Assembly (NCBI GenBank): GCA_018402135.1
Contig: JAGYJF010000005.1
Span: 62,001 to 126,000 of the forward strand
Reading direction: 5' to 3'
DNA: 64,000 bases
DNA from: Flavobacteriaceae bacterium
Lineage (GTDB): Bacteria; Bacteroidota; Bacteroidia; Flavobacteriales; Flavobacteriaceae
The notes under the pieces were generated by a model. That model worked only from the letters and a program-made list of their open reading frames with translations. It did not search any database and had not been told where the DNA came from. This document shows, piece by piece, positions 38,049 to 39,056 of this stretch (positions are counted from its first letter, which is position 1; every line of letters starts with the position of its first letter). Position numbers and translations under genes: made by a program.

Positions 38049-38109
38049 TTATTGATTACATTAACCTAACAATGAGACTATGACTTATACTTATAAGTTG
38101 CCAGTAATT

Positions 38110-38925
38110 ATGAAAAAACTCATACTGTTAATAATAATCCTAACTTTTAATCTCAGTTTTAGTCAAACTAAAGAGCTTGAAGGGAATTGGGTTTCGGATG
38201 AAAATGAAATGATCTCATTCAATTCTGAATATGATAATAAAAGCTCTTTAACAAGTAAAATAAGAAGTGACGACTTTTATTTAGAAGTTTTATCTGATAG
38301 TTTAAGTTTTCAATCAAGATATTATACTTCTGCGGATGATTACAAAAAAATGATTACGGACAGATATGACTTCAAAATCCAAAATTTAAATGACAGTATT
38401 CTGACCATTAAACCGATCTCAAAATATTCAATTAATTTTTTCGGTAACGATAATCCAATAACTTTCAAAAATCAAAATTTAATTACCGACAAATCCTTTG
38501 AGTTTGAAAAACTAATTTTCCATACTTCAACTTGTTTTGGTTCTTGTCCTGTAATTCACCTTGAGATATTAAAAAATGGAACATTTAAATTAGATGGAAC
38601 ATATTACAAAAACAGGTCATATAATTCTAAAGACTATGAACGTTCTGGAAATTTTACAGGTAAACTTACCGAAAAAGATTTAAAGAATTTAAACGATTTA
38701 ATTGTAAAATCTCGAATCACAACTTTTGAGGATACAAAAGATGGAAATATGTTTTGTTGTGATGGTGCCATAAAAACCATAATCCTATATCATAATGGAA
38801 ACCGGAATTATTTTAAGGCAATGTTTGAAACAAGATTGTTAAGAGAATTAGTTTCATATTTATACGAAATCGACAAAAAAGCGGAGTTAGTTAAGACTGA
38901 TGAGAAATTTGAATTTGAAAAATAA
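38110..38925 (+). CDS. exported DUF6438-like protein
   Basis: signal peptide MKKLILLIIILTFNLSFSQ; FHTSTCFGSCPVIHLEILKNGTFKLDG; ORF-track start 38080 is the host-gene start codon, real start 38110. Confidence 0.75.
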   Translation: MKKLILLIIILTFNLSFSQTKELEGNWVSDENEMISFNSEYDNKSSLTSKIRSDDFYLEVLSDSLSFQSRYYTSADDYKKMITDRYDFKIQNLNDSILTIKPISKYSINFFGNDNPITFKNQNLITDKSFEFEKLIFHTSTCFGSCPVIHLEILKNGTFKLDGTYYKNRSYNSKDYERSGNFTGKLTEKDLKNLNDLIVKSRITTFEDTKDGNMFCCDGAIKTIILYHNGNRNYFKAMFETRLLRELVSYLYEIDKKAELVKTDEKFEFEK

Positions 38926-38926
38926 C

Positions 38927-39056
38927 TACTGGCAACAACGTTATGATTAATTGCTTTGGCTAGTGCTTATCCTGAAAATTCCTTCGGAATTTTCTCTGGC
39001 AAGTATTTGTTTACTAAATTAATTGCTAGCCAGCGCACCTAATCAGACACCAAACG
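38927..39056 (+). repeat. attC-like folded element: outer arm TACTGGCAAC, 19-bp imperfect stem (38945-38963 / 39026-39044, 15/19), apical hairpin 38974-38994
   Basis: GATTAATTGCTTTGGCTAG versus RC GATTAGGTGCGCTGGCTAG; perfect GAAAATTCC-TTC-GGAATTTTC. Confidence 0.65.

What the first reader, a model, noticed from the sequence alone, without database searches (positions are those of the whole stretch)
38098..39056. One-gene, integron-cassette-like insertion that splits a metal-binding membrane protein gene at a G^AT site
Seen directly: host start ATG ACT TAT ACT TAT AAG (MTYTYK, 38080-38097) and ATA ACA GGA ATG ACT TGT GGC GGA TGT (ITGMTCGGC, from 39057) become one in-frame HMA N-terminus if exactly 38098-39056 is removed. 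The removed unit is TTGCCAGTAATT-ATG (12-nt leader), one exported DUF6438-like ORF (38110-38925), then ~130 nt of strong secondary structure. Its ends are complementary: GTTGCCAGTA (38097-38106) versus TACTGGCAAC (38927-38936). Circularising the unit would join CCAAACG to TTGCCAGTA and create a folded site TACTGGCAAC...CCAAACG^TTGCCAGTA. That is the layout of an integron attC with cleavage at G^TT. Established knowledge: integron integrases can place cassettes at secondary G^WT sites, and the reconstructed target here is AAG^ATAAC. The box sequences do not fit the classical RYYYAAC/GTTRRRY consensus, so this would be a divergent attC family or a different recombination system with the same topology. 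No integrase is in the window.
Basis: partly seen in the sequence, partly recalled or inferred. Interest (0 to 1): 0.87.

Follow-up and report, generated by a model that had tools for sequence, protein, structure and literature searches.

The report
Stray cassette from Bacteroidota integron-like system
A single gene with a folding DNA 'tag' has jumped into and broken a metal-binding protein gene; it is a stray member of a large gene-collecting system that works like an integron, is spread through the Bacteroidota, and uses a different kind of integrase from known integrons, so it probably goes uncounted in integron surveys.

Summary
Window 38098-39056 is one mobile cassette (leader, DUF6438 ORF, 130-nt folding site) inserted at G^AT in an HMA/membrane-protein gene. 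A same-genus genome keeps that gene uninterrupted at the same place. The folding site belongs to a repeat family found in 90/201 family-level and 102/399 phylum-level genomes (Bacteroidota), usually as one-strand arrays of single-gene cassettes (34-62 sites in each of six array-bearing genomes). Each cassette's first ~10 nt are the reverse complement of its own last ones, not of its neighbours'. The stem covaries strongly with almost no G-U, and the bottom strand folds better in 119/120 sites. In 17 of 17 loci inspected a tyrosine recombinase lies just upstream, in the same orientation, and the first cassette begins 26-111 nt after its stop (attI). Of 80 loci chosen by integrase alone, 20 hold sites, and all 47 sites lie downstream on the same strand. 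The window's own genome has this integrase (C3) with arrays. The integrase lacks the IntI-specific domain and fails the IntI model cut-off, and the boxes fail RYYYAAC/GTTRRRY. So it works like an integron but is not a canonical one. No recombination was tested experimentally.

The parts
37662..38012 (+). Upstream neighbour: HMA (heavy-metal-associated) domain protein; synteny anchor, not part of the cassette
   Evidence: Pfam HMA 5e-9; equivalent gene lies upstream in G070
38080..38097 (+). 5' fragment of the interrupted host gene (MTYTYK)
   Evidence: In-frame join with 39057 onward; intact homologue MKHDYHISGMTCEGC in G070
38097..38098 (+). Left junction G^TT; the target CTTATACTTATAAG^AT resembles attI (consensus ...TATAAC[A/C/T]AG^TT)
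38098..38109 (+). Cassette start box TTGCCAGTAATT, 12-nt leader before ATG; fits family consensus GTTR[CGT][ACG]NNN[ACT]A[TG]
38110..38925 (+). Cassette gene: exported DUF6438-domain protein, 271 aa
   Evidence: Pfam PF20033 46.6 bits, cut-off 30
38924..38936 (+). Cassette end box AACTACTGGCAAC, reverse complement of the start box with the family's conserved mismatch at position 11
   Evidence: family statistics
38933..39056 (+). attC-like folding site (YAAC...CG), slightly decayed (inner box GTTATG/AGACAC instead of GTGTAT/ATACAC)
   Evidence: R2 80.1 bits; family alignment and covariation
39056..39057 (+). Right junction CG^AT
39057..39306 (+). Remnant of the host HMA/membrane gene; reading frame lost and most of the middle deleted compared with G070

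Best explanation
The unit is a mobile gene cassette of an integron-like system. Shown by sequence: (1) cassettes are single-gene units that start TTRNNNNN and end in a folding site; (2) a cassette's start and end boxes match each other, as expected if the cassette is an excised circle whose junction rebuilds the whole site; (3) cassettes stand in one-strand arrays immediately after a dedicated tyrosine recombinase and a short attI (ATATAAC[A/C/T]AG^TT or a palindromic variant); (4) the window's genome has that recombinase, an attI and arrays. Inferred: the integrase recombines the folded bottom strand of the site with attI at G^TT. Here a cassette was instead placed at a rare secondary site, TATAAG^AT, that resembles attI. 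It broke an HMA/membrane gene, which then decayed. The cassette gene probably rides along and is expressed from outside; its own function is unknown.
For: Dispersed repeat family in 90/201 family genomes and 102/399 phylum genomes. 239 cassettes: start box against own end box 6.5/9 matches, against the other box of the same linear site 3.5, shuffled 3.2. 60 sites: 94% of 13 stem pairs kept, 10 pairs with double changes, covariation 0.38 vs 0.08 shuffled, almost no G-U. Bottom strand more stable in 119/120. Longest ORF forward in 161 of 170 cassettes with an ORF, median ATG 30 nt from the start. Integrase upstream and co-oriented, first cassette 26-111 nt after its stop in 17/17 loci. 80 loci chosen by integrase alone: all 47 sites are downstream and on the + strand. 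Own genome: integrase C3:111544-112674 and sites on C3 and C4. Intact host gene in G070.
Against: No recombination, circle or attI x attC event has been observed. The window site is decayed at the inner box, and no second copy of this very cassette was found in an array: its gene is rare (2 distant relatives in 201 genomes, without sites). The base before the junction in G070 is T, so the ancestral G^AT is read only from the window itself. Array integrases fall in at least two lineages, so one-integrase/one-site pairing is not proven.
Confidence: 0.92

Rival explanations
1. A cassette of an ordinary IntI integron (CALIN-type stray cassette) whose attC merely diverged; IntI elsewhere moved it.
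For: Same overall layout: AAC/GTT core boxes, fold, G^WT target. IntI is the top solved-structure match to the modelled integrase by fold.
Against: No protein over the IntI cut-off in 201 family genomes. Only 7% of boxes fit RYYYAAC/GTTRRRY. A dedicated non-IntI recombinase heads the arrays in every inspected locus.
Confidence: 0.04
2. The structured region is a structural RNA, terminator or MITE-like repeat with no link to gene mobility.
For: Strong fold; dispersed copies; no Rfam family reached its threshold, so an undescribed RNA could not be excluded at first.
Against: Start/end boxes co-vary across a whole gene length and only within a cassette. Almost no G-U pairs. Arrays headed by a recombinase. 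No target duplication.
Confidence: 0.02
3. Housekeeping XerC/XerD (dif-like, IMEX-type) insertion of the unit.
For: The integrases are Xer-like; the own genome also has XerD and XerC-like genes.
Against: Sites are long folded repeats, not short dif half-sites. The own-genome XerD/XerC loci carry no site, while the third recombinase heads the array.
Confidence: 0.02

Closest known systems
Integrons with IntI integrase (mobile class 1; chromosomal superintegrons)
   Same: One-orientation arrays of single-gene cassettes; folding site with AAC/GTT core, cleavage inferred at G^TT; attI next to the integrase; stray insertions at G^WT; group II intron in a plasmid array
   Different: Integrase lacks the ~43-residue IntI-specific domain and fails TIGR02249; boxes are NNNYAAC/GTTRNNN with 10-nt complementarity, a conserved mismatch and two further pairs; attI lies at the 3' end of a co-oriented integrase gene
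XerA-like tyrosine recombinases (NCBIfam NF040815, 'site-specific tyrosine recombinase/integron integrase')
   Same: The own-genome integrase scores 221.8 against a cut-off of 220; PDB XerA-type proteins are the best sequence matches
   Different: Array-heading, most with an extra ~100-residue N-terminal domain unknown to Pfam; XerA resolves chromosome dimers at dif (established knowledge)
CALIN (attC clusters lacking IntI)
   Same: Cassette arrays in genomes without a recognised IntI
   Different: Here the arrays do have an integrase; IntegronFinder 2 reported only one complete integron in Bacteroidetes proper, in Salinibacter ruber M1 (PMC9024848)

Membership tests
Integron (IntI type) | IntI integrase with the IntI-specific additional domain around patch III (feature as described in PMC9668308) | tested here: not met
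   Alignment with IntI1 shows that segment absent; alignment with PDB 2A3V splits at residues 181-237; 0 of 201 genomes over TIGR02249 cut-off, own integrase 201.6 bits vs 265
Integron (IntI type) | attC boxes RYYYAAC / GTTRRRY | tested here: not met
   7% of 180 sites fit each; YAAC and GTT are fixed by the search pattern; own consensus fits 99%
Integron (IntI type) | attC folds as a single strand, bottom strand favoured | tested here: met
   Compensatory changes; bottom strand more stable in 119/120. In silico only
Integron (IntI type) | Array of one-orientation gene cassettes | tested here: met
Integron (IntI type) | attI beside the integrase gene, first cassette joined at G^TT | tested here: met
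   17/17 loci, but at the 3' end of a co-oriented integrase gene
Integron (IntI type) | Integrase-dependent cassette excision and integration | not testable with these tools
   Needs an experiment
Integron (IntI type) | Pc promoter driving the cassettes | not tested
   Not examined
Tyrosine recombinase | Catalytic R-K-H-R-H-Y | tested here: met
   R233, K258, H323, R326, H349, Y358 invariant in 16 integrases
XerC/XerD | Over TIGR02224/TIGR02225 cut-offs | tested here: not met
   188.1 vs 335 and 189.9 vs 329.6; separate from own XerC/XerD in the tree

The most novel reading that the evidence does not exclude
A second, broad class of integrons, phylum-wide in Bacteroidota and also present in Bacillota (Saccharibacillus, Paenibacillus), runs folded-site cassette capture with XerA-like integrases that never had the IntI-specific domain. 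This would mean that domain is not required for integron-type recombination and that the cassette strategy is older than IntI or arose more than once.
Probability: 0.6. Interest if true: 0.92.

Novelty: new variant of a known kind. Interest (0 to 1): 0.86.

Why it matters
Integron surveys search for IntI and for attC of the classical type, and report Bacteroidota as nearly free of integrons (PMC9024848). These arrays suggest that much cassette-borne gene flow there (toxin-antitoxin, immunity, defence and unknown genes) goes uncounted. They also make an old question testable: is the IntI-specific domain needed to recombine folded single-stranded sites? And they supply sites, attI and integrases for such a test.

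Tried and rejected
Rfam: nothing near threshold. TIGR02249 as an integrase finder: rings in nearly every genome below cut-off, so only position and alignment were used. A second model hit in the window (14692-14807, 25.5 bits) lies inside a glycosyltransferase-like gene and is rejected as chance. The terminal 10-nt inverted match alone is not significant. The first tree held a wrong XerC row and was rebuilt. The same DUF6438 cassette was not found in an array elsewhere. A first automatic listing of insertion sites kept one row because of a faulty filter and was redone. IntegronFinder's attC model is not available here, so its failure on these sites is inferred from published counts. Literature searches found no description of Flavobacteriia arrays; the library lacks most subscription papers and preprints.

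Full report
OBSERVATION. The host reads MTYTYK, then a 959-nt unit, then ITGMTCGGC. In the one other genome of the genus searched (G070) the gene between the same neighbours (HMA protein upstream, ACC-deaminase-like gene downstream) is intact: MKHDYHISGMTCEGCAATVK... followed by a membrane part that includes ALITTIIVLGITTIGVTKTLLDKK. The window keeps the tail of that membrane part but has lost the middle, so the gene was interrupted and has decayed. No target duplication is seen.

A REPEAT FAMILY. The 130-nt region searched against 201 family-level genomes matched 90 of them, often several copies on one strand 0.5-3 kb apart. In 20-kb stretches I found 157 sites by pattern, and in a larger set 414 with the covariance model, overlapping loci included. 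The alignment shows YAAC-A-(C/T)GT(G/A)TAT...ATTGC, a variable middle, then GCAAC...CA-TACAC...CG^TTR. A 13-pair stem holds in 94% of cells, with compensatory changes in 10 pairs and almost no G-U, as expected for a DNA hairpin. Unpaired positions inside the arms are mostly A opposite C on the top strand, so G opposite T on the bottom strand. The bottom strand of the rebuilt site is more stable in 119 of 120 cases.

THE CASSETTE LOGIC. The first nucleotides of each cassette are the reverse complement of the box before its own site: 6.5 of 9 variable positions, against 3.5 for the two boxes of one linear site and 3.2 for shuffles. At position 11 the pair is always mismatched. This is what a circular unit of recombination cut at G^TT predicts. 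In cassettes with matching boxes the longest ORF runs forward in 161 of 170 that have one, with the ATG a median 30 nt from the start. The window cassette (ATG after 12 nt, boxes GTTGCCAGTAATT/AACTACTGGCAAC) fits. Cassette genes are mostly without a common Pfam family; single members include immunity, hydrolase, AAA and PtuA/PifA-like defence proteins.

THE INTEGRASE. A tyrosine recombinase of mostly 375-409 aa lies upstream of, and in the same orientation as, the arrays. In all 17 inspected loci the first cassette begins 26-111 nt after its stop codon, preceded by ...ATATAAC[A/C/T]AG^ or a palindromic or other variant. As a test that does not start from the sites, I took 80 loci by integrase similarity alone. 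Sites occur in 20 of them, and all 47 lie downstream on the same strand, in e.g. Winogradskyella, Seonamhaeicola, Algibacter, Zunongwangia, Algoriphagus, Rufibacter, Arundinibacter and Flavobacterium aciduliphilum. Six array-bearing genomes (Seonamhaeicola, Algibacter, Winogradskyella, Lutibacter, Zunongwangia and an unclassified Flavobacteriaceae) hold 34-62 sites each. In the whole phylum 102 of 399 genomes have sites. The system is also on a Chryseobacterium plasmid.

THE WINDOW'S OWN GENOME. It has three recombinases of this kind: XerD, a XerC-like one, and the integrase at C3:111544-112674, followed by attI GGGTATAAACAAG^TTGTACAC and sites on C3 and at the end of C4, where the contigs end. 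Two cassettes are solitary: the window's, and one at C1:598908 carrying a PIN-type toxin-antitoxin pair at GATATAACAAG^TT, nearly the attI consensus. The window target CTTATACTTATAAG^AT is a weaker match. This fits a low-frequency secondary insertion.

IS IT AN INTEGRON? By working principle, very likely. By strict membership, no: the IntI-specific segment is absent, TIGR02249 is below cut-off, and the classical boxes are rare. In a tree rooted on XerC/XerD, IntI is one clade (100/97). Array integrases form two other lineages within the same larger group; the deeper order is weakly supported. The modelled structure (pLDDT 83, but overall pTM only 0.51) matches IntI 2A3V and XerA about equally. 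Relatives in Saccharibacillus and Paenibacillus (Bacillota) also head attC-like repeats; in Saccharibacillus there are 23, and the start/end boxes of the cassettes examined match in the same way. The feature is therefore wider than Bacteroidota.

LIMITS. Everything is by sequence. Excision, strand choice and the integrase-site pairing are inferred. Some integrase lineages may use different sites. The covariation count used a MAFFT alignment of sites found by similarity, and the pairs were named by eye on it. Prior description outside the searchable library cannot be excluded.

Noticed in passing
L202:6297-7665 (Saccharibacillus kuerlensis), L203:6374 (Paenibacillus sp. NFR01), L206:6679 (Spirochaetota MAG): attC-like repeats (TAACATAATATTCACG...CGTGAATACAGGAACGTTA) downstream of an I2-less integrase in Bacillota, 23 copies in the Saccharibacillus genome, start/end boxes complementary; single sites of the same layout in the other two.
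   Followed up: partly
L144:26738-28054 (plasmid NZ_CP041688.1): Group II intron maturase gene inside the cassette array of a Chryseobacterium plasmid, recalling group IIC-attC introns of classical integrons.
   Followed up: no
G000 C1:598908-599034 (L230): Second solitary cassette in the window's genome, carrying an antitoxin/PIN-domain toxin pair at an attI-like sequence GATATAACAAG^TT.
   Followed up: partly
L042, L043, L044, L089 (G046:C14): The same ~510-nt cassette (start TTAGCAACAATAGT, end AAAGTGGCTAAC) repeated many times in one array, between other cassettes.
   Followed up: no
integrase residues 1-100 (L091:13545-13844): Most array integrases carry an extra ~100-residue alpha/beta N-terminal domain with no Pfam match; it is absent from the array-associated integrases of G186 and G163.
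   Followed up: partly
G000 contigs C3 and C4; contigs of the genomes of L178, L189 and L192: Many contigs begin or end at or near a site, suggesting that short-read assemblies break in these arrays and undercount them.
   Followed up: no
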